In this document: positions 17,779 through 41,900 of the stretch, in pieces
Layout of the letters: each line of letters opens with the position of its first letter
How positions within the stretch are numbered: the first letter of the stretch is position 1
Source: a virus
IMG/VR virus record: IMGVR_UViG_3300042398_001307
Location: 24,250-88,249 of that record
Length of the DNA: 64,000 bases
Strand: one strand, 5' to 3'
The notes under the pieces: generated by a model
Seen by the model: the letters and a program-made list of their open reading frames with translations, nothing else
Databases searched by the model: none
What the model was told of the DNA's origin: nothing
Position numbers and translations under genes: made by a program

Positions 17779-18029
17779 ATATCCGTGTGGAATTTATCCA
17801 CTCTTTTAGCCTTAAATTTTCTCTCTTCAAATAGCAAAACCGGTTGTATGAAGGCATATCCGATCATCGTCCTGTTAAGGATAGTTGCTAAGTACTCCAT
17901 TACAGCGTGGAGATTAATGTCCAAGTGGCTTTTCTGCCCTATTTTCATTACACACGAAATAAACCTGTGCTAGTCATAACTGTACTATTGTGCCTGAAAA
18001 ATGTGCCTAAGAATTGCCTAATGAGATGT

Positions 18030-19131: not shown

Positions 19132-19206
19132 TGGTGCGCTTGATGGGATTCGAACCCATTATCGTAAGTTTTAGAGGCTTTTGCTATACCAAGCAGCTTC
19201 AAGCGC
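19132..19206 (-). tRNA. tRNA with CTA anticodon (amber-suppressor-like)
   Basis: Acceptor GCGCTTG/CAAGCGC perfect, T arm ATGGG-TTCGAAT-CCCAT perfect, CCA encoded. The loop that keeps U33 and A37 is CTCTAAA, anticodon CTA, which would read UAG. The anticodon stem is weak (three pairs, mismatches at 27-43 and 31-39). An Arg-TCT reading would need C33. It may be a suppressor or a decaying tRNA. Confidence 0.6.
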
Positions 19207-19214
19207 GAAATTAT

Positions 19215-19597
19215 AAAAATAGTAGGGATTTCTCCCTACTAGGTATTTTTGGTTATAAGGTATTTCCTACCCCAGAACTCGCTGGATATTAAGCAGCGAT
19301 AGCATCAAAGATGCCATCTACAGTGTAGAATTCAAATTTTGTATTTGCTTTTGCATTTACTTTAAATGCTTGATTTACGGTCATCGCCTACCGATTCTCC
19401 AATGTTCTTTTATCCAGCAATCGAATCTAAGTCAGGCCCATTATAAAACATATTAGCACTTCCCTTTTAAGGGGCAGGAAGTTTATGGCTATGGCCCCAC
19501 TCTGATACCTCTAATATGTTTTATGGTGGACCTGGCGATGTTCTGCCCATCGCGTCTTACCAAACTATTACAACATCTTCAACGAATTCTTTAAATT
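19215..19597 (-). ncRNA. ssrA: Circularly permuted (two-piece) tmRNA
   Basis: In transcript order: a promoter; an acceptor piece with a T-arm-like GCGATG/CATCGC hairpin and CAGGTCC-ACCA (ending 19524); a linker closed by a 14-bp stem (19511-19524 with 19443-19456); then the coding piece starting GGGCCTGACTTAGATTCGATT (19439), like the tmRNA 5' end. GGGCCTG pairs with CAGGTCC over 7 bp. A tag frame 19348-19289 starts GCA-AAT and ends in AIAA-stop: ANTKFEFYTVDGIFDAIAA. GCTGGATA (19411-19418) pairs with TATCCAGC directly after the stop. tmRNA rescues stalled ribosomes and tags proteins for proteolysis. The T loop is not the usual TTCRA type. Confidence 0.8.
19219..19252 (-). terminator. Rho-independent terminator of the tmRNA
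   Basis: Minus strand AGTAGGG-AGAAA-TCCCTACT followed by ATTTTTAT, after the tag region. Confidence 0.85.
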
Positions 19598-19603
19598 ACA
19601 TGT

Positions 19604-19631
19604 ATTATACTACATAAAAAACTTTTGTCAA
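19604..19631 (-). promoter_or_regulatory. sigma70-type promoter of the tmRNA
   Basis: TTGACA, 16 bp, TATAAT on the minus strand; it would start the transcript near 19597, just before the tmRNA acceptor piece. Confidence 0.88.
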
Positions 19632-19634
19632 GAA

Positions 19635-19703
19635 CTATTTTCTTTTTACACGTGGTTTAATTCTTGGTTTACCGGTTAATGAGTTGTTTCTGCTTCTAGC
19701 CAT
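19635..19703 (-). CDS. Very small basic protein
   Basis: 22 residues, MARSRNNSLTGKPRIKPRVK..., strongly basic, with AGAGG before the ATG and its own promoter at 19735-19762. It ends TAG. This is too short to classify; its charge fits RNA or ribosome binding. Confidence 0.6.
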   Translation of the reverse strand: MARSRNNSLTGKPRIKPRVKRK

Positions 19704-22357: not shown

Positions 22358-24412
22358 CTACTTGGTTGTTGCTATGTAAATACCATCCCAGTCAGGTGGT
22401 AATTTAGTTTTTTTCATTTGTTCACACCGTTCAATCCATAACTCGTAACTATGAGCCATTTGTCCATCAAACTCGCTCATTAACTCGTTGGACATTTTGA
22501 TAGCTTGATCAAAATGTTGGGAACGATATGCTAATAACATGAAATTATGTTTTATTCTAGCCTCTTCATATGCTGGATAATCAACATTTTCTGTTAATAA
22601 TGGTGTATAAATTTGTAATCCAATTGTTTTACCTTTAACTGCTATATTATCAAGTTCCAATGTAAAAATTTCATCTTTAACTAATTCATTTGTATTAGGA
22701 CCAATGATTAATAACACACCATATGACTTAGTTTGGCCTTCTAGTCTGGCAGCAGTGCTTACTGAGTCACCTAATACATCATACCCAAATTTATCTTTAG
22801 ATCCAATGTTCCCAATCAATGTTTCACCAGTATTAACACCAGCGCCCATTCCAACTGGTGGTCTACCATTTGCAGTAAGTTCAATATTGAAGTCTTCAAT
22901 GGCTTTAATCATTTGTTGGGCAGTTTTCACAGCAGTAATTGCATGGTTTGGGTCATCTAATGGTGCACCATGCACGTGTAAACTAGCATCTCCTATGAAT
23001 TTAATCAATGTGCCGTCATTTTTTAATACTGGTACACTTAATGCAGTCATATAATCATTCATAATTTGGGTAAGACCTTCAACATCATCACCGAACGATT
23101 CACCTAGAGTGGTAAATCCACGTAAATCTGTCATTACAATTGAAAGTTCTTTACGTTCTCCACCTAGTTTAATAAGTTCTGGGTTCTTTTGAAGTTTTTC
23201 TACAATAGTAGGGTTAACATAAGAGCCAAATTGTTTCTTAATCTGCATTTTTTGCAAGAATTCACTTACAAATTTCACTCCATATGCGTGTAAAGATACT
23301 AAAATTACACCACTAACTGGTAATGTTATATCAAACAGGAACAAGTATTCACTAAATGCGTATTTACTGCCAATGATTATTATGGTTATGAGCCCAATAA
23401 CTGATGATAATCCAACATACATCCACCGTGATAGTAATAATACCACAATTCCAGCGAAAATTAATGTTAAAATCTCTAATCCATCGGCATAATCGGGGCG
23501 TTGTATTACTACATTATTCATGATAGTGCCAATTACCGCTGCTTGTACCTCATGTGGAAATACTGCACCTTTGGATGTTGGTATTGGGTTACCGATACCG
23601 GCTGCGGTTGGCCCTACGATAACAACTGATCCTTCTAAATCATGTGGAATGTTGGACAAACTGATACTTTTTGATGTTTGACTCCAATCAATCCAAATTC
23701 GACCTAAAGTATCGGTTGCAATAGGTCCAAATTTTGGAATTCTCATCTTTTCAACACCATATTCATTTAATTTTACTTGAAATGTTGTATCTCCGGTGGT
23801 TGCTAACGCCACTGTTTCTAAACTTAGAGCTGGGAATAGCTTATCAGATACCGAAACGATCAGTGGAATTCTTCTATTTACACCATCTATTTCAGGTAGT
23901 GTGTTTACAGTACCAGTTCCAGTTGCTGCTTCTTCAATAATTGGGATATTTGCAATTATTCCAGGATACTGAATAATACGATCTAGGTATTCTGGTCCAA
24001 GAACGGCTGAACCTGAAATTTTTGGAGTATTTTTTGAAATATCCGATGGTATGTTTGGTAAAATAGTTGGGTAAGTTTTGATAGCATCAGCAAATACGTC
24101 ATCCCCTCCTTGTCTATCCTGTTCCGGCATTAATACATTGAATACAACTAAACCAGCACTATGTTCATATAGGTTTTGGATTATATTTGCGTACACATCT
24201 CGCTTAAATGGCCATTGCCCGTACTTATCTAATGATGCTTCATCAATATTAATTGTATATATTGGGTTTTCAGTAGCTGGTTTTGCTGTTATTAATGTAT
24301 CAAAGTAGCGTAAACGAACGCTTTCTACAAATGATGGATCTGCTACTCTAACACTAACAATGAATATTAGTGTCAGTAGTGCTGTCCATGGACTTAATAG
24401 TATTTTTTTCAT
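22358..24412 (-). CDS. CHASE2-domain adenylate/guanylate cyclase
   Basis: 684 residues: N-terminal membrane anchor, periplasmic CHASE2 sensor (RYFDTLITAKPATENPIYT, GQWPFKRDVYANII), two or three further membrane helices (about 310-380), then a class III cyclase domain. Metal Asp residues sit in VMTDLRGFTTLGE and FIGDASL. The loop usually reading GDxVNxAARLE is GDSVSTAARLE here, replacing the conserved Asn but keeping the Arg. The enzyme would make cAMP or cGMP in response to an envelope signal, and cAMP controls biofilm and curli genes in many bacteria. Activity is uncertain because of the Asn change. Confidence 0.88.
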   Translation of the reverse strand: MKKILLSPWTALLTLIFIVSVRVADPSFVESVRLRYFDTLITAKPATENPIYTINIDEASLDKYGQWPFKRDVYANIIQNLYEHSAGLVVFNVLMPEQDRQGGDDVFADAIKTYPTILPNIPSDISKNTPKISGSAVLGPEYLDRIIQYPGIIANIPIIEEAATGTGTVNTLPEIDGVNRRIPLIVSVSDKLFPALSLETVALATTGDTTFQVKLNEYGVEKMRIPKFGPIATDTLGRIWIDWSQTSKSISLSNIPHDLEGSVVIVGPTAAGIGNPIPTSKGAVFPHEVQAAVIGTIMNNVVIQRPDYADGLEILTLIFAGIVVLLLSRWMYVGLSSVIGLITIIIIGSKYAFSEYLFLFDITLPVSGVILVSLHAYGVKFVSEFLQKMQIKKQFGSYVNPTIVEKLQKNPELIKLGGERKELSIVMTDLRGFTTLGESFGDDVEGLTQIMNDYMTALSVPVLKNDGTLIKFIGDASLHVHGAPLDDPNHAITAVKTAQQMIKAIEDFNIELTANGRPPVGMGAGVNTGETLIGNIGSKDKFGYDVLGDSVSTAARLEGQTKSYGVLLIIGPNTNELVKDEIFTLELDNIAVKGKTIGLQIYTPLLTENVDYPAYEEARIKHNFMLLAYRSQHFDQAIKMSNELMSEFDGQMAHSYELWIERCEQMKKTKLPPDWDGIYIATTK

Positions 24413-24624: not shown

Positions 24625-25953
24625 TTAGTGGAATAAAAGAAAAACACCATCCACATCGTGTCTATTAGCACCAGAATCACCATCACCCGGTCTAACGATT
24701 ACATTCCATTTTGGGATATCCCCTTTTGGAATAGTTACCAATTGATCATATGTCACAACTGAATCTTTCGGAACTCCATAATTTAACACTAAATCACGAA
24801 TAAATGATTGTAAGGTTGCATCAGAATGCCATGATAATTGTTTAACCGTTTTTTTCGGATTTTTAGGGTCTGGAAACGTATGATAACTTGTATATTTATC
24901 GAACATTGTGACTGGAACAACAATCGAACGTTTCAATTTACCAAACATTTTTTCAAATTCTTTAATTTTTTTGTTTTCTTCGGGTTTTGCACCTTCTGAC
25001 CAGTTCGTGATGAAATTTTTAGGTTTAGATGATAACATTACTCCGGCTATTTTTGTATAGCAATAGAAATTCACGTTTGGAAATTTATTAGCAATATCAA
25101 ATGCAAGGTTAAGGTATTGGTCACTGAAGAAATCACCAGCATCATGCCAACGCACACTAACTTGATAATCTTTTTTACCCCATTTATCCAATTCTTTTTG
25201 AATTTCTGCACTTAATTTGGCAACAAACCCGCCTGGATCATTAATTAAGAAATTTAATGTTTTGCTTGATTTCTCCCAATTGGGATTATACATTACATAA
25301 TTGCCCTTTTTAGCATAACATATCGCTTGGCATCCACCAGCTCCTGGGCAAGTATCAACAAAAATAAATTGATCATTCTGTTCATTTACTGCAACGCCTT
25401 TAAGTGCTGGTAACCCAACATTGAAATATATTTCACCACCCTCGCCAGCAGTGTGTTCCATTTTTTCATTCTGTTTTAGTAAATTTTTTGGACGAGTTTT
25501 GATAATATTCTTTACACTATTTACATCAATTTCAGTTGACCCTTGCATAAATTTTATACTACTACCATGAACAAATGGTTGAGTATAATAATCCTTTTTT
25601 CGCTCCTTTTTATTACGTGGAGCTGGAATATCAGTCCATTGTTGTTTAATGTTCTGATAATCTTGTTGTTTTTTATCTGATTTATCTTTAGATCTTCTGT
25701 GAACTTGATCCGCTTTAACTCTAGTTAAATATTGTTTAAAATCATCATCTGAAACATTTTTAAATGCTGGATCATTAACAAATGGTTCATAATTTGGGTT
25801 GTTTTCTTGTTCTTCATCCAACTCGGATTCAGGATTAGCTAGATCTTCACCTGTTTCACTAGCCAGCCATGATGAAAGAGGCATATAGGTCATGTTGTTT
25901 TTAACTAGATAACCAGATCCTGCATTTTCATATAAAAATTCTTGTAATCTCAT
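24625..25953 (-). CDS. Gp88-like protein with head-targeting-type leader
   Basis: 442 residues. The C-terminal 270 residues match the Gp88 family: TCPGAGGCQAICYAKKG cysteines, then VSVRWHDAGDFFSDQYLNLAFDIANKFPN and a tyrosine-rich VNFYCYTK. This cysteine pattern suggests a bound metal or Fe-S cluster. The N-terminal 150 residues are acidic linker. The extreme N-terminus MRLQEFLYENAG strongly resembles T4 internal-protein leaders (LYE cleavage site). Function unknown. AAGGA precedes the ATG. Confidence 0.7.
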   Translation of the reverse strand: MRLQEFLYENAGSGYLVKNNMTYMPLSSWLASETGEDLANPESELDEEQENNPNYEPFVNDPAFKNVSDDDFKQYLTRVKADQVHRRSKDKSDKKQQDYQNIKQQWTDIPAPRNKKERKKDYYTQPFVHGSSIKFMQGSTEIDVNSVKNIIKTRPKNLLKQNEKMEHTAGEGGEIYFNVGLPALKGVAVNEQNDQFIFVDTCPGAGGCQAICYAKKGNYVMYNPNWEKSSKTLNFLINDPGGFVAKLSAEIQKELDKWGKKDYQVSVRWHDAGDFFSDQYLNLAFDIANKFPNVNFYCYTKIAGVMLSSKPKNFITNWSEGAKPEENKKIKEFEKMFGKLKRSIVVPVTMFDKYTSYHTFPDPKNPKKTVKQLSWHSDATLQSFIRDLVLNYGVPKDSVVTYDQLVTIPKGDIPKWNVIVRPGDGDSGANRHDVDGVFLLFH

Positions 25954-25986: not shown

Positions 25987-26859
25987 TTATGATAATTTAC
26001 TTTCGATAAATGATACAATAGCACCGGCTACATCTGTATTGCAGTATTTTTCGAACCCACTAAACCCTGGGTTGGAGTTTGCTTCACATACATGAAACCC
26101 CTTGCTATCAAACAACAAATCAATACCGGCGATATCTAATTTTAATACATTTGCGGCATTTAATGCTATTTCAGCAATCTCTGGTGTTACCGGATACGCT
26201 TCACCAGTCCCACCATTTGTTATATTTGCTCGAAAATCACCTGATGGTGCAGTTCTTTTCATTGCACCTAACACTTTACCGCCTACTATTAACACTCGCA
26301 GGTCTTCGCCTGGTCTATCACCTAAATATTGTTGTACTATTAATGTTTTTTCATTATGAAGTGCATCCGTAAATTCAATAATATTGTTGTATTCTTTTGC
26401 TGATTGACATAAGTATACACCAACCCCAAAACTACCAACTACGACCTTGATAATGCATGGAAATCCAATATTTTCAGCCACTAATTTATTTTTTGCTGGA
26501 TATTTTGCTATCATGGTGGTTGGTACTGCAATGCCAGCTCTACTTAGAATTTCAGATGATTGAAATTTATCCTGTACTATATCTATACTTTTACTAGAAT
26601 TGTAACATGGGACCCCGGCGAGTTCAAAATATCGTACAATTGCCAATTCATCACGTTTGATACCTGCACCTAATCTGACTAATACTACTTTTGGTAATTC
26701 AATTCGTTTACCATCATAATAAATCCCATTATTAATTACTACATCAAAGTTTTTAAAGTAACAAACTCTGATAGTTATATTTCTTTCTGCGAAAACACTT
26801 ATTAATTTTTTTGTTTCGAAATCATTTATTTTTTGTTTAGTTAAAATTATAACTGACAT
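25987..26859 (-). CDS. RimK-like ATP-grasp ligase
   Basis: 290 residues. The ATP-grasp core is clear: NSSKSIDIVQDKFQSSEIL, FPCIIKVVVGSFGVGVYLC (P-loop-like), QQYLGDRPGEDLRVLIVGGKVLGAMKR, and the catalytic end CEANSNPGF. RimK adds glutamate residues to ribosomal protein S6 or related targets. The phage also encodes bS21, so ribosome modification is possible. Substrate unknown. Confidence 0.85.
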   Translation of the reverse strand: MSVIILTKQKINDFETKKLISVFAERNITIRVCYFKNFDVVINNGIYYDGKRIELPKVVLVRLGAGIKRDELAIVRYFELAGVPCYNSSKSIDIVQDKFQSSEILSRAGIAVPTTMIAKYPAKNKLVAENIGFPCIIKVVVGSFGVGVYLCQSAKEYNNIIEFTDALHNEKTLIVQQYLGDRPGEDLRVLIVGGKVLGAMKRTAPSGDFRANITNGGTGEAYPVTPEIAEIALNAANVLKLDIAGIDLLFDSKGFHVCEANSNPGFSGFEKYCNTDVAGAIVSFIESKLS

Positions 26860-26886: not shown

Positions 26887-28005
26887 TTATTGTTGCTGGA
26901 CGCTTATTTTTGGGCATCCACCAGCGGTGGTGCAGTTAAAGTTGATAGAATAAAATTGTTGAGTAGAGCCAGATTGAGTGAGACTTAAATCTACTGGATT
27001 TCCGGATAATCCGATATTAGCCATGTGATTACCAGACCCTTGTTGTGTAATATCAACATGTTTATCACCGTCTGATAGCGATGTTTCTACATAATGATTA
27101 CCAGAACCTGATTGATTTATCAATAGAGAGCTACTATTGCCAATGATATTAGCTGAAATTAAGTTGTTACCACCAGTACTGTTTTGTTTAAAATCAACAG
27201 AATTGTTATTTCCAATAATATTTAATGATGTGTAATTTGTAGTAGTATTTATAGATGATGATTGATCGATATTGATAGTATTTCCAGATCCATTTCCTGT
27301 ATAATTTGCATAATTATTCAGTGTGCCTGATTGATTTACGGTAATAGTATTCGCAGTACCAATTTGGTTAATATAAACTTGACTATCTGCCGTGGATCTG
27401 TTAATAAATTCCTGTAAATTCGCTAAATTAACTGGATTTGCTGAAAAACTACTGGAAGAACCGCCACAACACAATACCGGTGCAAAAAAACTTACAGATG
27501 TTGCAAAATTTGATACTGGAACTACTGTTATACCACTTCCAATATTCCAATCAAGCTGAATTACTGCCCCTCCTCCATTTTCGTACCACCAAACATCTAT
27601 ATTGTATACTTGACCTGCTGTTAATGTAATAGAACCAGAACTATTAAAATTAGCGGGTCCTTGTTCAACCCAATTATTGATTACTATAGTGTCATTGATT
27701 GTCATATAAAATCCATCATCACTTCTATCATAGAAAGTGACTGATTTTGATCCAGAACCAGCAGTGCCCGGCCATAAGATACTACCGGTAAAGTGTATTA
27801 TCACCCCATCAACATTCCCACTACTCATAATAACACCACCGCCCCAGTCATAATTTAATGTATCAGTTCTCCCAGAGGTCAACATTGTTCTATTTGTTGA
27901 TCTTGAAGGTGTAGCACCACCGGCTGAATATACGACATAATCTAAACCTGCAAAACCAGCTGAATATACATTAAATGACAGGAGAAAAAGCATGATATAT
28001 TTCAT
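26887..28005 (-). CDS. Secreted curlin-repeat protein with PA14-like domain
   Basis: 372 residues. Signal peptide, then a PA14/GLEYA-like domain (SVTFYDRSDDGFYMTINDTIVINNW ... VYNIDVWWYENGGGAVIQLDW, about residues 30-160), then at least five curlin-type repeats (INQIGTANTITVNQSG, ITQQGSGNH). Curlin repeats stack into amyloid fibres outside the cell. The PA14 domain would bind sugars or act as adhesive. The start overlaps the FecR stop (ATGA). Such a fusion is not a standard CsgA. Confidence 0.85.
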   Translation of the reverse strand: MKYIMLFLLSFNVYSAGFAGLDYVVYSAGGATPSRSTNRTMLTSGRTDTLNYDWGGGVIMSSGNVDGVIIHFTGSILWPGTAGSGSKSVTFYDRSDDGFYMTINDTIVINNWVEQGPANFNSSGSITLTAGQVYNIDVWWYENGGGAVIQLDWNIGSGITVVPVSNFATSVSFFAPVLCCGGSSSSFSANPVNLANLQEFINRSTADSQVYINQIGTANTITVNQSGTLNNYANYTGNGSGNTINIDQSSSINTTTNYTSLNIIGNNNSVDFKQNSTGGNNLISANIIGNSSSLLINQSGSGNHYVETSLSDGDKHVDITQQGSGNHMANIGLSGNPVDLSLTQSGSTQQFYSINFNCTTAGGCPKISVQQQ

Positions 28006-29087
28006 TTTTTAAACACTCCTGGGTTTTGTTTGATAGTAACTATGTTACCACCTGGGCTGCCATCGCCAAGAATTGTGGTAGCTGGCTCGAAATTTTGGAT
28101 AATGGTTACTGTTGTATTTGAGCTATAACCCAATGTTTTAACTTCTGCATAATCCTCTGTTCCTAAGACACGAAACGCTATACCTTTGCCTTTACTTTGA
28201 AGAATAGATGACTCTGGATGCTCCCAAATGACACAAATATTAGTAGTTGGATTACAGCCATTTGCATTTGCATTTTTAATCATGTCCAAAATTCTAGCTT
28301 CAGCTTCTTCTGTACTTTTGGTTGCTTGATTAACGATTCTTCGAGTCATTTCTTCTTCCATTGCTTGTTGCTCTTTATCTTTTGGTGATTTTCCAGCTTC
28401 TTTGATGGCTTTTTGTACTTCAATTGGTTTTACTAGAATTAAATTGTTATTAATTTTTGACTCGATTGTGCTAACAGCAGTGGGGAGTGTTGGACTGGTA
28501 GTAGAACTTTGTACATAGGTTGCTTCGAATGCTTTGTCTAAAGATACTGTGCCAGCCAATGTTGAAACTTCAATTTTTCCTACTTTACATGTATTTTCTT
28601 GTAACTCATACTGTTTAACATCTTTTTCATCTTTGCAGCTCGGTACCAACATAATTAAAGATTGACCAGCTTCATCAACAGTCATTGCAAAATCCGTTCC
28701 TCTAACTGCAATCGTGGCAGTTGGTGTTTGAATACCTACTTGCTGTGGATTATTTTTAGCAATTTGACCAGATGCATACCGAACAGTACCCATTCCAATC
28801 TTCAATGCCAATTTACCAGCGTCTGATTGTTTTGGATCAAATACAAAATCATCAATAAGTAATCTACTATTTTCATTCACTTTAACTTTTGTGTCATCTT
28901 TGAATGTTATATTTGCAACACAACCACCGGTGGTATAAGTATCCATACTTTCAACACTCACACCTTTATCACCCGGAAGTTTTTGTTTATTTCGTTCTAT
29001 TTGGCAATTAGTTCCCTTTGTATCCGCGACTGCCCCAATATCAGCAAATACGTTACCGGACATTAGAAGTAGAGCTGCCCACCACAT
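28002..29087 (-). CDS. FecR-domain secreted protein
   Basis: 361 residues with a signal peptide (LLLMSGNVFA). The FecR domain is seen at about residues 20-150: IGAV.D..G, NENSRLLIDDFVFDP, and IQTPTATIAVRGTDFAMTV, the hallmark. Residues 220-290 form a charged helix (KDKEQQAMEEEMTRRIVNQ). The C-terminus ends with repeats of type VTIIQNFEP and IVTIKQNPG that resemble single curlin units. FecR proteins often accompany CHASE2 and adhesin genes; here it lies between two curlin genes. Confidence 0.82.
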   Translation of the reverse strand: MWWAALLLMSGNVFADIGAVADTKGTNCQIERNKQKLPGDKGVSVESMDTYTTGGCVANITFKDDTKVKVNENSRLLIDDFVFDPKQSDAGKLALKIGMGTVRYASGQIAKNNPQQVGIQTPTATIAVRGTDFAMTVDEAGQSLIMLVPSCKDEKDVKQYELQENTCKVGKIEVSTLAGTVSLDKAFEATYVQSSTTSPTLPTAVSTIESKINNNLILVKPIEVQKAIKEAGKSPKDKEQQAMEEEMTRRIVNQATKSTEEAEARILDMIKNANANGCNPTTNICVIWEHPESSILQSKGKGIAFRVLGTEDYAEVKTLGYSSNTTVTIIQNFEPATTILGDGSPGGNIVTIKQNPGVFKK

Positions 29088-29088
29088 G

Positions 29089-29886
29089 TTATCTAGCTAT
29101 TGCAGATTGTGGGCTTACTAATGAACTTGAACTTGTTCTAACCGTGATTGTATTAAACCCCCCTTGTGTATCAATATTGATACTAGTATTGTTTGCACCT
29201 TGTTGTTGTGTAGTAATTGCATTACTATTGCCGGTAATAGTTTCGATTAATGAATGTATACCAACATCAGTTTGTTCAGCATTGATAATATTACTACCTC
29301 CTGAAATATTGAAATTAGTTGTATCATGTGATCCAGCTGATGATCCTGTACCAGAATTTCCTGTTAAATTCTGTGTAATTTGGTTACTATTACCAGATAT
29401 AGTCAGGGTGCTTGTGATATATTTACCGATTATATTTTGAATAGATAAATTATTATCACCTGTTATTGATTCGTTAATTATATTGTATTGATTACTAGTA
29501 TTATTTTGGTCACCGATAACTAACTGAGTTTGATTAGATGACCCAATTATGGTACTGGTATACGTGTTATCATTACCACGTATGTTATACTGTGCCCAAT
29601 CATTACTTCCATGTTGAGAAATGTTAAAAATATTATTACTACCATTAATTACCGCATAATTTGAAGAACTTGCTATATCTGGTGTGATTGTAGTAATACC
29701 ACCACTATCAACTGAAGTTATACCTGCAGGACCACTAATATTGTTAGTTCCACCAACTTGTTCAATAGTAATAGTATTAGATGTACCTAATTGTTGTATA
29801 TATACATTATTTGGACCAGTTGAAAGGTCTGTTGCTAACGATATGTGTGAAAATAATAATGATGAAATTATTAATGCTCTTTTCAT
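29089..29886 (-). CDS. Curlin-repeat (CsgA/CsgB-like) amyloid protein
   Basis: 265 residues. Signal peptide (ISSLLFSHISLA), then repeats of the form N-xx-IxQ-xG-xxNxIxIxQxG, e.g. NVYIQQLGTSNTITIEQVGG, NIFNISQHGSN and NAITTQQQGANN. This is the curlin pattern, with more Asn and Ser. The protein would be exported through CsgG and polymerise on the surface. It ends one base before the FecR start. Confidence 0.88.
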   Translation of the reverse strand: MKRALIISSLLFSHISLATDLSTGPNNVYIQQLGTSNTITIEQVGGTNNISGPAGITSVDSGGITTITPDIASSSNYAVINGSNNIFNISQHGSNDWAQYNIRGNDNTYTSTIIGSSNQTQLVIGDQNNTSNQYNIINESITGDNNLSIQNIIGKYITSTLTISGNSNQITQNLTGNSGTGSSAGSHDTTNFNISGGSNIINAEQTDVGIHSLIETITGNSNAITTQQQGANNTSINIDTQGGFNTITVRTSSSSLVSPQSAIAR

Positions 29887-29922
29887 AGTTATAAATGATT
29901 AAATTTCTCTAATCATGCTCCT

Positions 29923-30729
29923 TTATTCTTTATAAGACCATAAACCCTTACGGACTCCTTCTTTTATTGTTTCAATTACTGCTGCTTGGATAGCTTTATT
30001 GGTTGCTCTGTTAATGCTTTCATTAATACTACCACCGATTTCGGCTTCAACGGCCATTGTGCCAGCATCTAAAAATTTTAATAGCCCAACTCTATCTAAA
30101 TAGCTTAATACAGTTTTGGTAATAGTTACACTAGTAAGCACTTCACCAGAACTTACTGATACTGTACGCAAACTAATTGTTACGGTATCACTTTGGTATT
30201 GTGTATCTGCTCCTATACCAAAGAATCTTACCCCAGCCCCGCCTGTGACTGTGTTGGAATCATAACCAACAATCGACCCTTCTACTATAATACCTGCAAA
30301 TGTCATCGCTGGTAAAGGCTGTGCATCTTTACCTTGAAATTGCTCTCTCATTTGACGAATCATTTGTCTTTCTTTAACAAGATTCTCCAATCCAACTCTT
30401 TCTACCACCTTAAACCATTGTGCATCACCTGCATCTTGTAATGCTTTTATTAAATAACCCTCGCCGCCTTGTGTAACAGCTGAACTCAAACTAGCGATAC
30501 CGGTGACTGATTTACGTTGTCCAGTTTTATCTTGGAATCCGTATACTGCCACATGAACTGGTCCATTCGCCGGTGGTTTTAATTTGTTTTCTGGTTTTAT
30601 CAAAAACGTACTAATACTTTCATTGACTGGATCATCAAATTGTTCACCAGTGATTAGTTTATTCAATGCACTACTAGTGGCACACCCTTGTAAAATTAAA
30701 AATAATGGTATTAAAAGTAACTTTTTCAT
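29923..30729 (-). CDS. csgG: Curli secretion channel lipoprotein CsgG
   Basis: 268 residues. Lipobox LILQGCA, then the CsgG fold: HVAVYGFQDKTGQRKS, GEGYLIKALQDAGDAQWFKVVERVGLENLVKERQMIR, the membrane beta-hairpin region with GGAGVRFFGIGADTQYQSDTV, and a C-terminal helix. CsgG forms a nonameric outer-membrane pore that exports curlins. Its length matches the family (about 277). It is followed directly by csgF in transcript order upstream, sharing one base. Confidence 0.93.
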   Translation of the reverse strand: MKKLLLIPLFLILQGCATSSALNKLITGEQFDDPVNESISTFLIKPENKLKPPANGPVHVAVYGFQDKTGQRKSVTGIASLSSAVTQGGEGYLIKALQDAGDAQWFKVVERVGLENLVKERQMIRQMREQFQGKDAQPLPAMTFAGIIVEGSIVGYDSNTVTGGAGVRFFGIGADTQYQSDTVTISLRTVSVSSGEVLTSVTITKTVLSYLDRVGLLKFLDAGTMAVEAEIGGSINESINRATNKAIQAAVIETIKEGVRKGLWSYKE

Positions 30730-31208
30730 TAGAAATAAAACGTCCCTGCTGGTACTTGCATAGTGGTGGACTGGCCTGAAGCAGTATTTTGAATATTAAT
30801 TTGAATCATACTTGCATTATTTGGGCCACTGATCATTTGCCAACTTATTGAATTACCACCTAAATCTGGGATAGATCCACATATCCCACTACCCACTGTA
30901 CAATTAGCACCATCACTGAACATGCTGTTTGTTAGTTGTTGTGCCAATTGGGAATATATTCTGGATTGTAAATTAGCTAAAAACTGCGCTTGTGGCGTAT
31001 TTGCAGCAGCTGATATCGCTTGTTGTTTAATTGCTTCAGCAGCTGCCTGATTTTGTGTGGTAGCTTGTGTCTCTAATTGCTGTAATGTTAAGACATGTGA
31101 ACTATACCCAGTGCCACTAAATGCTGGACTATTGAATTGAAATTGAATTTCTGCAGCAAATATATTACTTGCTATGAACAATAATAAAATACCTACTATA
31201 TTAGTCAT
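30729..31208 (-). CDS. csgF: Curli assembly factor CsgF
   Basis: 159 residues with signal peptide (LLLFIASNIFA). The mature start IQFQFNSPAFSG corresponds to the CsgF N-terminus that plugs into CsgG. The middle has a Gln/Ala-rich helix (QNQAAAEAIKQQAISAAA) and QSRIYSQLAQQL. The C-terminal beta part ends in GQSTTMQVPAGTFYF, as in CsgF. CsgF couples the pore to fibre nucleation at the cell surface. Confidence 0.9.
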   Translation of the reverse strand: MTNIVGILLLFIASNIFAAEIQFQFNSPAFSGTGYSSHVLTLQQLETQATTQNQAAAEAIKQQAISAAANTPQAQFLANLQSRIYSQLAQQLTNSMFSDGANCTVGSGICGSIPDLGGNSISWQMISGPNNASMIQINIQNTASGQSTTMQVPAGTFYF

Positions 31209-31279: not shown

Positions 31280-31954
31280 TTAATGTTCTTTAAACAAGCA
31301 GTCAGTAATGTAGGATAGTGCTTGATATTCCGTTAATCCTAATGACATTAGGACACGCGGGTTATGCGGATTTTGTTTTTGTTGTTGACAGTAAAACACA
31401 TGACTTTCGTTTGATTCATCTTGGGTGTAATTGAAAGAATCCAACGATGAGAGATAATATTTCAATGTGTATTCAATAACGGTATAAATTTGATCAATTT
31501 CCGAGTCTTCTTGGATATTACCGGCTGCGATGATTGCATCTGAGAAAATTGGTTTAGCCCATGCTGGTAAATCTCGTTTTTTATTCCAATCTAACGTAGC
31601 AGAATAATGTTCAAACCAATTCAGCATTGGGTGTAGTCTATCCACAGGGCTGAAATCATGAAAACATCCGGTAATTTTATTTTTACCAGCAAAGATATCG
31701 AATCCAAATATTGGAGAATTATTGTGGTTGTGTGGAAATATGCAGCAATGCATCATCCAGATCCCTTTGGTGTCTCTAGCATCGATAACGTTGATGCCTG
31801 CTTTTTTATATAATGGTGACACCCAGGTTGTATTAGACCAACCTGGATATGAAAAAGGTAATGAAACTGGGTCAATGACTTGTTCACCAGTTTCATTAAG
31901 ATGTGATTCAAAAAGGTTTTGAACTTTGTTAAGAGTGTTAGCTAATTTGCTCAT
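31280..31954 (-). CDS. Ferredoxin-dependent bilin reductase (PcyX/PebS-like)
   Basis: About 224 residues. Features of the FDBR family are visible: PFSYPGWSNTTWVSP near the N-terminus, HCCIFPHNHNNSPIFGFDIFAGKNK with the central Asp, HDFSP, and a C-terminal YQALSYITDCLF. FDBRs reduce biliverdin to coloured bilins. The neighbouring heme oxygenase supplies biliverdin. Marine phages are known to carry such pairs (PebS in cyanophages; PcyX in phages of non-cyanobacteria). The exact product cannot be read from sequence. Its start overlaps the heme oxygenase stop. Confidence 0.85.
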   Translation of the reverse strand: MSKLANTLNKVQNLFESHLNETGEQVIDPVSLPFSYPGWSNTTWVSPLYKKAGINVIDARDTKGIWMMHCCIFPHNHNNSPIFGFDIFAGKNKITGCFHDFSPVDRLHPMLNWFEHYSATLDWNKKRDLPAWAKPIFSDAIIAAGNIQEDSEIDQIYTVIEYTLKYYLSSLDSFNYTQDESNESHVFYCQQQKQNPHNPRVLMSLGLTEYQALSYITDCLFKEH

Positions 31955-32483
31955 TAAGGTCATTCATGATTGCAATGGCCCATTTAAACGCCACTCTTGC
32001 TTCGTCACCTAAATCATCAGTTGCGATACTACGAATTGATGTTTTTAGTATCTCGATATCTTTAAATTTATACATTCTACCGGTACCAGGTACCATTTTT
32101 GCTATGAATTGTCCACCAAACAAATCACCCATATGGCGAACATAAAAATGTGCCTTAATTAAGTGTCTACGTTCTTTATCGCCAACTAAATCGATTAAAT
32201 AACGGTTGTAGTCAATTGCTGATTGTACCCATTTATTAGTGTAATCTTTTCCAGCCAATTCAACGAAATCTTGGTAAATGAGATTAGTTCGTTCTATTCC
32301 TGGTAATGTATCTAGGACTCCCAATAGTCTAGCACCTAGTTCAATTGGATTATACACCAACATCATTTGATATAAATAATTGGCATATTGATCGTTTGTG
32401 ATCTTCCCAGACAACAAAAGTTTTGAGAATTCGGTTTTCTCAACTTCTGTATGAAGATCTTTTGTAATTTCACGTAATGACAT
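31938..32483 (-). CDS. Heme oxygenase
   Basis: 181 residues from MSLREITKDLHTEVE. The proximal heme-ligand His is in LHTEVEKTEF. The distal-helix motif is YVRHMGDLFGGQFI (GDLxGGQ). The family length is normal. It opens heme to biliverdin, CO and iron; biliverdin would feed the bilin reductase behind it. A perfect promoter lies just upstream. Confidence 0.92.
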   Translation of the reverse strand: MSLREITKDLHTEVEKTEFSKLLLSGKITNDQYANYLYQMMLVYNPIELGARLLGVLDTLPGIERTNLIYQDFVELAGKDYTNKWVQSAIDYNRYLIDLVGDKERRHLIKAHFYVRHMGDLFGGQFIAKMVPGTGRMYKFKDIEILKTSIRSIATDDLGDEARVAFKWAIAIMNDLNEQIS

Positions 32484-32506
32484 ATTTTTCCTTATAATAA
32501 TCATAT

Positions 32507-32611: not shown

Positions 32612-33403
32612 ATGATATTTATAGAAAATAAGTATACCATATGGTATAATAAAATTATTAATTCCTCAAAAACTCGTAAATTATCAAATAATGTATATAC
32701 AGAAAGACATCACATTATACCAAGAAGTGTTGGAGGGTCTAATGATGACAGTAATATAGCAATTCTTACTGCCCGTGAGCATTTTTTATGCCATTTATTA
32801 TTAGTTAAAATGACTTCTAATAAAGAACGGGTTAAGATGATATATGCTTCTTGGAGAATGGTTTGCACATCTAACAGATATCAAGTAAGACATAAAACAA
32901 CATCACGGATTTATCAAAAAATTAGAGAAGATTATATCAATGTTGTTAAAAATAGAAAAATGACTGATGAAACAAAACAAAAATTAAGAGAAGCTAACCT
33001 AGGTAAAAAGCATAGTGATGAAAGTAAAGCAAAAATGTCCAAATCTAGAGCTGGTATACTATTAAATGAAATACACGGGATAGAAGAAGCAAATAAGATT
33101 AGGGAAAAACGTTCTGCTTCATTAAAAGGTAAAAATGCTGGAAAAACTCCTAGATTAGGTGCAAAATTAACAGAAGAATCCAAGCAGAAAATATCCGATA
33201 AAGCAAAACTCCGTAAAAAAGAATGCGAATATTGTAAAAATCAGTATTCTCTTTTAACTTACAATCGTTATCATGGTAAAAATTGTAAATTATCTGGGAA
33301 TACTGATATTAGATTAATGAAAACTTGTGTATATTGTGATAAAACTATGGACCCAGCAAATTATGCAAGATATCATGGTGATAAGTGTAAATTAAAACAT
33401 TAA
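32612..33403 (+). CDS. HNH homing endonuclease with NUMOD3 and zinc-finger repeats
   Basis: 263 residues. HNH core ERHHIIPRSVGGSNDDSNIAILTAREHFLCHLLL (about residues 35-67, listed by motif HHIIP, GG, N, H). Two NUMOD3 repeats follow (NLGKKHSDESKAKMSKSRAG; LGAKLTEESKQKISDKA), then two C-x2-C-x14-YHGxxC fingers. AAAGGAG precedes the ATG. It is inserted on the plus strand between minus-strand genes; its stop overlaps the clpS stop by four bases. Confidence 0.92.
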   Translation: MIFIENKYTIWYNKIINSSKTRKLSNNVYTERHHIIPRSVGGSNDDSNIAILTAREHFLCHLLLVKMTSNKERVKMIYASWRMVCTSNRYQVRHKTTSRIYQKIREDYINVVKNRKMTDETKQKLREANLGKKHSDESKAKMSKSRAGILLNEIHGIEEANKIREKRSASLKGKNAGKTPRLGAKLTEESKQKISDKAKLRKKECEYCKNQYSLLTYNRYHGKNCKLSGNTDIRLMKTCVYCDKTMDPANYARYHGDKCKLKH

Positions 33404-33702
33404 TCTTCACATTCAATTTTTATCTGGAGTGGAAAGCCATTATCTCTGGCCATACGTGTTGCTTCAACCGCCTTGATTTCAGCAATTTCAAAGTCATATA
33501 ACCCAGCAATACCAGAACCGGTTTCATGCACTTGCATAGTAACTGTGGATGCTGAATCGAAATTGTGTTTGAAAATATCAACAAGCATTTCAATTACGAA
33601 ATCGACTGGTGTGAAATCATCGTTAAGGATAATGACCTTCCATCTTTTAGGTTCTGAAACACGAACTTTAATTTTTTCTTCAATTTTAACGTCTACTGCC
33701 AT
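33400..33702 (-). CDS. clpS: ClpS, adaptor for ClpAP protease
   Basis: 100 residues with the complete ClpS core: WKVIILNDDFTPVDFVIEML (Asn and Asp that bind the N-degron amino group), VTMQVHETGSGIAGLYDFEIAEIKA, and PLQIKIE. ClpS feeds N-end-rule substrates to host ClpAP. Together with the phage tmRNA it indicates control of host proteolysis. Confidence 0.95.
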   Translation of the reverse strand: MAVDVKIEEKIKVRVSEPKRWKVIILNDDFTPVDFVIEMLVDIFKHNFDSASTVTMQVHETGSGIAGLYDFEIAEIKAVEATRMARDNGFPLQIKIECED

Positions 33703-33721
33703 GATATATTTCCAAATAAGA

Positions 33722-33745
33722 TGGGGGAGTTTTCTCCCCCGGGGT
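33722..33745 (-). terminator. Rho-independent terminator
   Basis: Minus strand GGGGGAG-AAAA-CTCCCCC then ATCTTATTT, between the Hsp20 stop and clpS. Confidence 0.8.
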
Positions 33746-33750
33746 TTATA

Positions 33751-34182
33751 TTATTTAATTTCAATTTTTCGAGGTTTTACAGCTTCTGGAACCAATAATT
33801 CTAGTTCAATACTTAGAATACCATCTTTAACTGTTGCACCACGGACTTCTAAATACTCTGCCAAAAAGATTGATTTCTCAAAACTTCTTAATGCTAATCC
33901 ACGATATTGATAATCGCGATCAGTGGTTTCAGTTTTATATCCCTTAACAATAATTTCGTTTTGATTCACTTCAACTGAAACTTCATCCTTACTAAACCCT
34001 GCAATGGCCATTTCAATTTCATAAGCGTTGTCATCAACTTTTACCACATTATATGGTGGATAATTATTAGTTGATGATTGTAAATATCGGTTTTCGTATT
34101 GACTATACAATCTGTCAAACCCGATTAATGCTCTACTTAAATTAGCTAATGCTGTTGTGTCTAATGTTCTTAATGTTGTCAT
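33751..34182 (-). CDS. Small heat shock protein Hsp20 (IbpA-like)
   Basis: 143 residues from MTTLRTLDTTALANLSRALIGFDRLYSQ, preceded by AAGGAGA. The alpha-crystallin domain is present (PPYNVVKVDDNAYEIEMAIAGFSKDEVSV ... GLALRSFEKSIFLAEYLEV; A-x-x-x-n-G-x-L-like DGILSIEL), with a C-terminal KPRKIEIK anchor motif. It holds unfolded proteins for refolding by DnaK and GroEL, both encoded upstream here. Confidence 0.93.
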   Translation of the reverse strand: MTTLRTLDTTALANLSRALIGFDRLYSQYENRYLQSSTNNYPPYNVVKVDDNAYEIEMAIAGFSKDEVSVEVNQNEIIVKGYKTETTDRDYQYRGLALRSFEKSIFLAEYLEVRGATVKDGILSIELELLVPEAVKPRKIEIK

Positions 34183-34246
34183 CTTTGATTTCTCCTTATA
34201 TAAGCAAGAGTTGAGGTAGCCTCGCCTGAGCACTACCTCTCCATGT

Positions 34247-37794
<3,548 letters not shown>

Positions 37795-37830
37795 AATATG
37801 TTCTCCTATAATGTTAAGCAAGAAATACAG

Positions 37831-37854
37831 TATACCCAACTGGCGTATACTTGT
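37831..37854. promoter_or_regulatory. Inverted repeat upstream of dnaK
   Basis: AGTATACCC-AACTGG-CGTATACT, a 7-8 bp palindrome about 40 bp before the dnaK start; TATACT could also be a -10. Possible operator. No heat-shock (sigma32) promoter is seen. Confidence 0.45.
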
Positions 37855-38996: not shown

Positions 38997-41900
38997 CTAT
39001 TTATAATCTCTTACTGATGACTCAATAAAACTTATTTCTGTTTCTGATAGATTATATAGATTATACAACTCTGCATCATTCCATGATTTTGATAAATCAA
39101 TAACTGGTACAAATGCAAATCTATCAGGTGGGTTATGTTGTGAAATTTTACGTAATAACACCATAAATCTAAAAAACTTAGTTTGCATGTATGTAGCTAG
39201 GTTTAACGCTAATGTTTCATTATCAAAGTGATCAATCACTACGTAGGTTTCTGTACAAATTTCACCTGGTCCTATTACAAATGGTCTGTTAATTACTTGC
39301 AATTTATCGTTATCACCAGTACCAAACGCTGCACTGACTACTGTTTTATATCTATGAATAATATCAATATTTTTTTTGATGTTACCAATGTCTGTATACT
39401 TTGCAAACTTCCTTCCATGAACTAATACGGTATTATCATGTTGATCCACAAAATCACTGAAGGTAGTTCTCAATCCAAACGGTGTTGTAGAAAGTACAAT
39501 TGGACCATAAAATGAATCTGATTTATCTAAAACCTTATCAAGAATTGATATCGCTTCATTGAATCGAACAATAACATCATATTTATTAAGTGGTCTTAAT
39601 AATGAATTCACTACTTTATTATTATCAATACTAATAAATTCACAATCACCATTATATGATTTGTCCATCAAGAAATATGAAACACTTCCTTCAACTAATG
39701 TATTATGGAAACAGTCTTTAGATGTTTTATAAATTCCAAGCTTTTTGATGTTGGTATTATTCATCATTTGCTCTCTAAAGTCATCAACATTTTTCCCACA
39801 TGTGAACCATCTAGCAGGAGTCATCATTAATACAACATCTGGATTAAATGAGAATGCACGATCAACGAACAACTGGTATACTGATTTAGAACTGCGACCA
39901 TACCCACCATCTGGCTTATTGTACATAGGGTTTGAAATAATCACATTTACTTTTGGATCATACGTGGGATCAAAAATATCACCTTCTGATATATTTCCTG
40001 TGGGAATTCCTAAATTATATACAGTGTTAACTCTTTTAAAGAATGATACCATACTGTGATCAATATCACGGTAAAACACATTTTCTGGTTTTACTGTTAA
40101 ATTACGTTTTTTAGCCTCATTCAACAAATAAATCAATAATATTCCTCTACCACCACACGGGTCTAACACTGTCAGCTCTGGATTAGCCTCAACATATGGC
40201 ATTATTTCATTCACCAATTGCTCAGCAATTTCTTTACGAAGTGCAACGAATCCTTTATTATTTTTATAAATTGAATCTTCCATCGCCATATATAATGATT
40301 CTAATGGTAACTCGGAATCTACGAATTTTTCTATCCACAAGTTTGTATATATGGTATCGATTTCCGAAGGACTTAACGCTAATTCAACAAATTCAATGCC
40401 TTCATCAAACAAAGATAATATTTCAGTATCGCCATCAATGATTGCTTGTTTAACAATCTTTACACAGTCTGCTACTGTTTTTACATCCCTGATGAATGCA
40501 ATAATTCTACATTTAGCAACACATAACAGTTTGAAATTATTCCAAATTTGTTTTTGTTGTTCTTCATCAAATAAATCCAGTTGGATCGGGTTTGGACTTT
40601 TACTTTGCTTGACAGTTTTTCCACCGGTCCCATTATTATTAATTTCTAATATTGCACTTTCTGATGAAACTGTGTTCTTGATTGATAACAAAAAATCAGA
40701 TGGTGTTAATGTATTGATATTAATACATTGTTGAATACCATATTTCCCATTTGCAGCCAACTCAGCATAAATTTTATTAAAGCTAATTTCATCAATTTTA
40801 ACAAATCCACCATTTACTTGTGTGAAGAAATCGTAGTTATTGTAAATTGTTCTAGAGATTTCAGCAGATCCACCGCCTGTGTTACGATCTGCAGCTAATT
40901 TCTCAGCCACTGTGATCATCACATTGATTGATGCTTCTAAATCGGCAATAAAGATACCACAGTTTGATTTCCCAGGGGATTGTCTACATACTCTACCAGT
41001 TGCCTGTTCAAAGAAGTTAACGCTATCACCAATACTTCTTAAAAAGATTACTGAGCCCCATTTAGGGATATTTGCGCCAGTACAATCTTTAATACAAGTC
41101 AATGTTAGGGTTGGTTCATTAGATTGCTCAATTTGATCTTTTCTATCACGTAGATTATCATCGTATGCATCAAAAATTTTACCATTAAAGATCCCGTTAT
41201 CAATTAACAATTGTTTAAGTGCTTTAATGTATACGCTTGCAGATCCATCTTTATTGCCATTTGGTAATATAGTTAAAATATGTTTTGTAGATTCACTGCA
41301 TAATCCTGGTGCGTTATAAATACTTAATGCATCGCCTTTCGGATTAAATGGTGATCTTCCAACTAGACGTTTAAAAAACCATAAAATTGAACTTTCATAT
41401 GTGAAAACTACCTCATTATCAACAACTGTAAAATTAAACAATTTGTTAAAGGTAAATGCCTCAGCATCATCAACCCAAAGTGGACTAGTTTTTAAATGTG
41501 ATACTAGATCTTTTACATCAAGTGCATAAGTATTCATATCTGGAAATGATTTATACGGACTATCTGGGTTGGTTCTTTTATCTTCAAATATATCATCCCT
41601 GGTAAATAAAACCCGATTAGAATGGTCAAACAACTCAGCCGCAGTACCACTAAAGATAAAGTCATACGGAGTACCTGAAACAAATACTTTAAAGCAATTT
41701 TGACCAAATGTTTCTTCAATTGCCATCCACATCTTATTTGTTTTTGACCCTAATAATACATGGGCTTCACCAATCAATAATACGCCAATCCGGTTTTCTA
41801 AACCAACATATCTACTATTTAAAATATTATTTGATTTTTGGGCAACATCGTGGTAGCCAGCAAATAAAACAGGTATTTCATCATTTTCGTGAATTTCTGG

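What the first reader, a model, noticed from the sequence alone, without database searches (positions are those of the whole stretch)
26887..31208. A curli system in a phage genome
Two curlin-repeat proteins, a FecR-domain protein, CsgG and CsgF form one minus-strand block with overlapping starts. CsgG and CsgF are specific to curli export, so the phage could make the host cell secrete amyloid. Effects might be aggregation of infected cells, trapping of virions, or masking of receptors. CsgE and the regulator CsgD are not present. I am not aware of phages described with csgFG plus curlins.
Basis: partly seen in the sequence, partly recalled or inferred. Interest (0 to 1): 0.88.

Follow-up and report, generated by a model that had tools for sequence, protein, structure and literature searches.

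The report
Phage curli operon with swappable adhesin heads
This giant-phage fragment carries a curli (sticky amyloid fibre) export operon of a kind already described in ocean phages, but its second fibre protein carries an interchangeable, probably sugar-binding head, which suggests the phage makes its infected host cell selectively sticky.

Summary
csgF, csgG, a curlin, a FecR-domain protein and a second curlin lie on the minus strand at 26887-31208, and a CHASE2/adenylate cyclase at 22358-24412 belongs to the same module. The record is an 88-kb viral fragment related to jumbo T4-like phages, not host DNA. It is not new as a kind. Pelagibacter phage HTVC008M and methylophage Melnitz have the same gene order, and papers from 2020 and 2022 describe the phage type VIII secretion module including FecR, both curlins and the cyclase.

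Three things go beyond those papers. (1) The module is conserved in at least 80 IMG/VR contigs, up to 372 kb, under purifying selection. (2) The second curlin is modular: a conserved curlin tail carries a head that is PA14 (here), F5/8 type C, other types, or absent. Heads change at least 24 times on a 48-row backbone tree, even between phages with 96% identical CsgG and FecR. The PA14 head models like sugar-binding adhesins. (3) The FecR protein is secreted and ends in curlin-type strands, unlike the membrane regulator.

Best reading: export of adhesive fibres on infected cells; effect untested.

The parts
30729..31208 (-). csgF: exported CsgF homologue; N-terminal FxxPxFxG segment aligns with the N-terminal region of E. 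coli CsgF
   Evidence: Pfam CsgF 2.6e-10; F25, P28, F30, G32 invariant in 10 phages incl. HTVC008M and Melnitz; PDB CsgF alignment restricted to this region, E=0.18; dN/dS 0.12-0.27
29923..30729 (-). csgG: outer-membrane lipoprotein pore (lipobox LQGC)
   Evidence: Pfam CsgG 1.4e-49; profile matches E. coli CsgG structures at 3.9e-67 over almost full length; lipobox in 84/84 relatives; dN/dS 0.02-0.10
29089..29886 (-). curlin1: exported curlin-repeat protein, candidate main fibre subunit or nucleator
   Evidence: canonical repeat NNVYIQQLGTSNTITIEQ at residue 26; 75/75 relatives have one; 61% G/N/Q/S/T
28002..29087 (-). FecR-domain protein: exported, no transmembrane segment after the signal region, C-terminal curlin-type strand
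   Evidence: Pfam FecR 4.4e-11; 0 of 68 have a TM-like segment beyond residue 45 and 68 of 68 end in a strand motif, 5.7 expected
26887..28005 (-). curlin2: signal sequence, PA14 head (about residues 18-170), CCGG linker, curlin solenoid (208-357)
   Evidence: Pfam PA14 2.6e-9; model mean pLDDT 70.1, solenoid blocks mostly 78-93; PDB matches of the head to PA14 sugar-binding adhesins, Z 11-14
25987..26859 (-). RimK-like ATP-grasp ligase, often next to the module in close relatives
   Evidence: Pfam RimK 2e-49; present beside the module in part of the contigs
24625..25953 (-). GP88-family gene, occasional insertion between curlin2 and the cyclase
   Evidence: Pfam GP88 1.9e-28; same place in L017
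22358..24412 (-). CHASE2-adenylate/guanylate cyclase, last gene of the module
   Evidence: Pfam CHASE2 1e-39, Guanylate_cyc 2.2e-16; same place in HTVC008M, Melnitz and most relatives

Best explanation
This is a phage-encoded curli (type VIII secretion) operon of the pelagiphage type. CsgG forms a lipoprotein pore in the host outer membrane and CsgF docks on it. Two curlin proteins and a FecR-domain protein with curlin-type C-terminal strands are exported through it and assemble as amyloid-like fibres on the infected cell. Curlin2 is the specificity part: its conserved curlin tail fits the fibre while its exchangeable head (here a PA14 lectin-like domain) binds a glycan, so the infected cell sticks to particular cells, particles or polymers. 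The likely benefit is bringing new hosts next to the burst ('sibling capture') or covering the surface against competing phages. The CHASE2-adenylate cyclase probably adjusts cAMP in response to the envelope or fibre state. Shown: gene identity, order, conservation, purifying selection, modular heads, secretion-type N-termini. Inferred: secretion, amyloid, glycan binding, adhesion, benefit, role of the cyclase.
For: CsgG profile matches E. coli CsgG structures almost end to end; lipobox in 84/84 and hydrophobic N-termini in nearly all module proteins. Same order csgF-csgG-curlin-FecR-curlin-(rimK)-AC across contigs up to 372 kb and in two cultured phages. dN/dS 0.02-0.27 for all five genes. 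Canonical curlin repeats in 75/75 and 57/62 proteins. Curlin2 heads: PA14 in 8 and F5/8 type C in 14-15 of 45; at least 24 label changes on a csgG+FecR tree of 48; L020 vs L058: CsgG 96%, FecR 96%, curlin2 tail 82%, head 27% identical. PA14 head models like the MpAFP PA14 sugar-binding domain (Z 13.8), RTX adhesin PA14 (13.7), Flo1/Flo5 flocculins (12.6-12.9) and Epa adhesins. CsgF keeps FxxPxFxG, the stretch that aligns with the N-terminus of E. coli CsgF, in every phage compared.
Against: No clumping was seen with phage Melnitz under its culture conditions (PMC9004378), although Melnitz curlin2 has no head. CsgE is missing from the related records searched. The CsgF match to E. coli CsgF is weak (E=0.18). 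Heads are absent in 8 of 48 relatives, so adhesion by a head is not essential everywhere. No expression, amyloid or binding data exist here.
Confidence: 0.55

Rival explanations
1. The pore is repurposed: phage CsgG (with or without CsgF) acts as a channel for lysis timing (pinholin/secretin-like) or for nutrient uptake, and no fibre is made.
For: Proposed for Melnitz on the basis of AlphaFold models and supposed lack of csgA/B (PMC9004378); uptake was proposed in PMC7029224 and PMC9599517; CsgE gate not found.
Against: The premise fails: curlin-repeat genes and a FecR protein with curlin-type strands follow csgG wherever the contig is long enough, with few exceptions for curlin2, and also in Melnitz itself, and they are under purifying selection. 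CsgF keeps the segment that aligns with the E. coli CsgF N-terminus.
Confidence: 0.12
2. The fibres chiefly mask the infected cell (superinfection exclusion or protection from grazers), and the variable heads are diversified to avoid being recognised by others rather than to bind a target.
For: Same anatomy; superinfection defence proposed in PMC9599517. Head turnover fits either diversification for new targets or evasion.
Against: Heads are recognisable binding-domain families (PA14, F5/8 type C), and the PA14 model resembles sugar-binding adhesins, which favours binding.
Confidence: 0.2
3. The curlins are carried in or on the virion, as fibres or adhesive decoration, rather than displayed by the cell.
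For: Exchangeable heads recall tail-fibre tips; the T4-like phage has large tail-fibre genes.
Against: All module proteins have secretion-type N-termini and sit with an outer-membrane export pore; virion parts do not need these.
Confidence: 0.06
4. The FecR protein and the cyclase form an iron- or cAMP-dependent control circuit and curli is its output (reading of PMC9599517).
For: FecR and AC are regularly in the module; argued in PMC9599517.
Against: The FecR protein has no transmembrane segment beyond the signal region in 68 of 68 and ends in curlin-type strands, unlike the membrane-bound anti-sigma FecR (established knowledge). The cyclase may still be regulatory.
Confidence: 0.1

Closest known systems
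Pelagibacter phage HTVC008M T8SS module (KC465899) and pelagimyophages (PMC7029224, PMC9599517)
   Same: Same gene order csgF-csgG-curlin-FecR-curlin-AC; CsgE not reported; HTVC008M curlin2 also has a PA14-type head with DDG
   Different: CsgG 44-46% identical; different phage branch, with a heme oxygenase-bilin reductase pair next to the module here; PMC9599517 reads FecR as an iron-dependent regulator, and neither paper mentions the heads in its main text
Methylophilales phage Melnitz curli operon (MZ577098, PMC9004378)
   Same: Same order, two curlin-repeat proteins around FecR, then cyclase
   Different: Curlin2 has no head; its authors proposed a lysis pore and said csgA/B were lacking
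HTVC023P-type pelagipodophage T8SS (PMC9599517)
   Same: csgF, csgG, curlins, FecR, AC together
   Different: Podoviruses with one or two histidine kinases before csgF; here a bilin reductase precedes csgF
E. coli csg curli system
   Same: CsgG and CsgF homologues and canonical curlin repeats
   Different: No CsgE found; extra FecR and CHASE2-cyclase; headed curlin; E. coli constriction-loop residues NF are aligned with SL or QL in most phage copies
PA14/GLEYA adhesins: Marinomonas MpAFP PA14, yeast Flo1/Flo5, Candida Epa
   Same: Predicted fold of the curlin2 head, Z 11-14, and the DDG motif
   Different: Head is fused to a curlin solenoid rather than an RTX or cell-wall stalk; identity 9-21%; binding untested

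Membership tests
Curli / type VIII secretion system | CsgG outer-membrane lipoprotein pore | tested here: met
   Pfam 1.4e-49; PDB CsgG 3.9e-67; lipobox 84/84
Curli / type VIII secretion system | CsgF homologue with CsgG-docking N-terminus | tested here: met
   Pfam 2.6e-10; FxxPxFxG invariant; PDB CsgF aligned only there, E=0.18. Docking itself not tested
Curli / type VIII secretion system | Secreted subunits with curlin repeats S-x5-Q-x-G-x2-N-x-A-x3-Q | tested here: met
   Relaxed canonical repeat in 75/75 curlin1 and 57/62 curlin2; in the window the A position is I
Curli / type VIII secretion system | CsgE periplasmic factor | tested here: not met
   No match over the Pfam cut-off in 11 records, most of them possible fragments. 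Reported as lacking in pelagiphage modules (PMC9599517), so treated as non-essential
Curli / type VIII secretion system | Extracellular amyloid formation | not testable with these tools
   needs wet work
Curli / type VIII secretion system | CsgD regulator | not tested
   CsgD was not searched for; PMC9599517 says it is lacking in most bacterial lineages
Pelagiphage-type phage T8SS module | Order csgF-csgG-csgA/B-FecR-csgA/B-AC | tested here: met
Pelagiphage-type phage T8SS module | Histidine kinase before csgF (podovirus form) | tested here: not met
   Upstream gene is a bilin reductase; a podovirus trait, so it does not exclude the myovirus form
Anti-sigma FecR regulator | Transmembrane helix between cytoplasmic and periplasmic parts | tested here: not met
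   0 of 68 full-length proteins have a TM-like segment beyond residue 45
PA14 sugar-binding adhesin domain | PA14 fold with paired-aspartate calcium motif | tested here: met
   Pfam 2.6e-9; Z 13.8 to MpAFP PA14; DDG in all 11 PA14-headed copies listed. Model confidence in the head is moderate
PA14 sugar-binding adhesin domain | Binds a glycan | not testable with these tools
   no binding assay

The most novel reading that the evidence does not exclude
Phages run a host-surface adhesion system with swappable specificity: a conserved curli export and fibre chassis whose second curlin carries an exchangeable lectin-like head, replaced between close relatives much as tail-fibre tips are, so that an infected cell, not the virion, is programmed to capture chosen targets.
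Probability: 0.4. Interest if true: 0.8.

Novelty: new variant of a known kind. Interest (0 to 1): 0.52.

Why it matters
Why phages carry curli genes has been called unclear since 2020 (PMC7029224). The exchangeable heads are a specific clue to function in the sequence: they point to selective adhesion of the infected cell, which can be tested by glycan arrays on the heads and by expression in csg-deleted laboratory E. coli. The data also argue against the published pore-only reading for Melnitz, because the curlins and the CsgF N-terminal segment are kept, and against reading the FecR protein as an iron regulator.

Tried and rejected
Host segment or prophage: rejected on viral gene content and relatives. 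Phage unrelated to described curli phages: rejected. T4-type late promoter TATAAATA upstream of csgF: none there, and the count in the window is at chance, 15 vs 12.7. AlphaFold model of the FecR protein: too poor to use, mean pLDDT 42. Bacterial donor of the module: the genome scan returned 13 loci, most with the phage-type module on MAG contigs that look like binned phage DNA, so no donor could be named. The Salmonella phage hit (OR851715) is a 1.5-kb unverified contig and was set aside. A class-wide bacterial search could not be centred on a virus record. Same head families in other genes of these phages: PA14 elsewhere in one record (G003, two places), not pursued. Literature for jumbo or huge phages with curli: no relevant paper among those listed. 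Curlin plus PA14 domain: one paper, on yeast adhesins.

Full report
What is there. Pfam names CsgG (1.4e-49), CsgF (2.6e-10) and FecR (4.4e-11) over cut-off. The Pfam curlin repeat is below cut-off in the window's own proteins, but the family evidence is strong: a canonical curlin repeat is present in 75 of 75 curlin1 and 57 of 62 curlin2 relatives against about 0.2 expected from shuffles, and in none of the csgG, csgF or FecR proteins. Downstream lie RimK, a GP88 gene, a small ORF and a CHASE2-adenylate cyclase at 22358-24412.

Not host DNA. The window lies in an 88-kb viral record with T4-like tail-fibre, RNA-ligase and structural genes and 26 tRNAs. Five of ten long related records (202-372 kb) have a T4-type large terminase; that of a 372-kb one is nearest to the jumbo phages PA5oct, Phosso and CBB. 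An RNA-binding-protein gene in the window is 68-71% identical to the copies in three of these long records, versus 48% in the best cultured phage. The window's own record is a fragment that was not searched for a terminase, so its assignment to the jumbo branch is likely but not proven.

Already known as a kind. Pelagibacter phage HTVC008M and Methylophilales phage Melnitz carry the same order csgF-csgG-curlin-FecR-curlin-AC. PMC7029224 (2020) reported csgF and csgG in pelagimyophages and proposed 'sibling capture'; PMC9004378 (2022) reported them in Melnitz, saw no clumping and proposed a lysis-timing pore; PMC9599517 (2022) described the full module with FecR, both curlins and AC in podo- and myophages, and its expression in the sea. 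PMC9636769 mentions csgGF in sediment temperate viruses. The PHROGs library has families of unknown function that match the phage CsgG, CsgF and FecR proteins.

Breadth and selection. A scan of viral contigs found 164 stretches encoding relatives of CsgG; the best 80 (66-88% identity) were kept. Where contigs are long enough the order csgF-csgG-curlin1-FecR-curlin2-(rimK)-AC is kept almost everywhere, often with hsp20, clpS, heme oxygenase and bilin reductase upstream. dN/dS (Nei-Gojobori; dS is near saturation, so the ratios are rough) is 0.02-0.10 for csgG and 0.06-0.27 for the others: the whole set is maintained.

New point 1, swappable heads. Curlin2 has a conserved curlin tail, usually behind a CCGG linker. 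In front of it stand different heads: PA14 in 8 and F5/8 type C in 14-15 of 45 by Pfam, other recurrent types recognised by sequence, or no head. On a csgG+FecR tree of 48 non-identical rows the head type changes at least 24 times (minimum possible 8). L020 and L058 share 96% CsgG, 96% FecR and 82% curlin2 tail, but their heads are only 27% alike; L044 and L070 share 86% FecR and 76% tail but 26% head. Head types were assigned by my own patterns with Pfam as support, and ORFs were called mechanically. The window's PA14 head, modelled with moderate confidence, matches PA14 sugar-binding domains of bacterial adhesins and yeast flocculins at Z 11-14 and keeps the DDG motif in all PA14-headed copies listed. 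The best matches of all are an anti-sigma-factor-domain protein of Clostridium clariflavum (Z 15-16), and PA14 also occurs in glycosidases and the anthrax antigen, so the fold alone does not prove sugar binding. The curlin tail is modelled as a 14-strand solenoid with block confidence mostly 78-93. The three phage-curli papers do not mention PA14, discoidin or lectin domains in their main text.

New point 2, the FecR protein. In 68 of 68 full-length copies there is no transmembrane-like segment beyond residue 45, and in 68 of 68 the last 20 residues hold a curlin-type strand motif (5.7 expected); HTVC008M and Melnitz share this end. The FecR protein is thus better read as an exported, fibre-associated part than as the regulator suggested in PMC9599517. 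It has no full canonical curlin repeat, and its structure model was too poor to help.

New point 3, CsgF. The invariant FxxPxFxG segment aligns with the N-terminus of E. coli CsgF (weak E=0.18), which from established knowledge inserts into the CsgG barrel. This argues against the proposal that phage CsgF no longer pairs with CsgG. The E. coli constriction residues NF are aligned with SL or QL in most phage copies, so gating may differ. CsgE was not found over cut-off in 11 records.

Reading. Most likely the phage makes the infected cell export an adhesive amyloid-like fibre whose specificity sits in the curlin2 head. Identity and conservation are shown; secretion, amyloid, glycan binding and benefit are inferred. 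Melnitz showed no clumping, but its curlin2 has no head, so that observation does not test the headed form.

Noticed in passing
17829-17975 (-): Match to Rfam RF01718 Polynucleobacter-1 RNA, 83.1 bits, a possible hint to a freshwater betaproteobacterial setting or host.
   Followed up: no
19238-19635 (-): A permuted (two-piece) tmRNA gene, RF04321 and RF01849; Melnitz also carries a phage tmRNA near its curli genes.
   Followed up: no
19132-19206 (-): tRNA with CTA anticodon called tRNA-Pyl by ARAGORN; perhaps an amber suppressor. It sits next to the tmRNA.
   Followed up: no
31280-32504 (-): Heme oxygenase and ferredoxin-dependent bilin reductase pair, conserved upstream of the curli module in many relatives.
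   Followed up: partly
33400-37839 (-): A set of proteostasis genes: ClpS, an Hsp20-like protein, GroEL-like and Hsp70.
   Followed up: no
38997-42809 (-): A 1270-aa protein with ResIII helicase and Eco57I methylase matches, resembling a fused restriction-modification or defence protein.
   Followed up: no
L092-L102, L104: Curli modules on contigs labelled as Rhodobacteraceae, Flavobacteriaceae, Pelagibacter and other MAGs have the phage-type gene order and look like phage contigs binned with bacteria.
   Followed up: partly
L003: The Melnitz paper says csgA/csgB are lacking, but the GenBank record annotates two curlin-repeat proteins beside csgG.
   Followed up: yes
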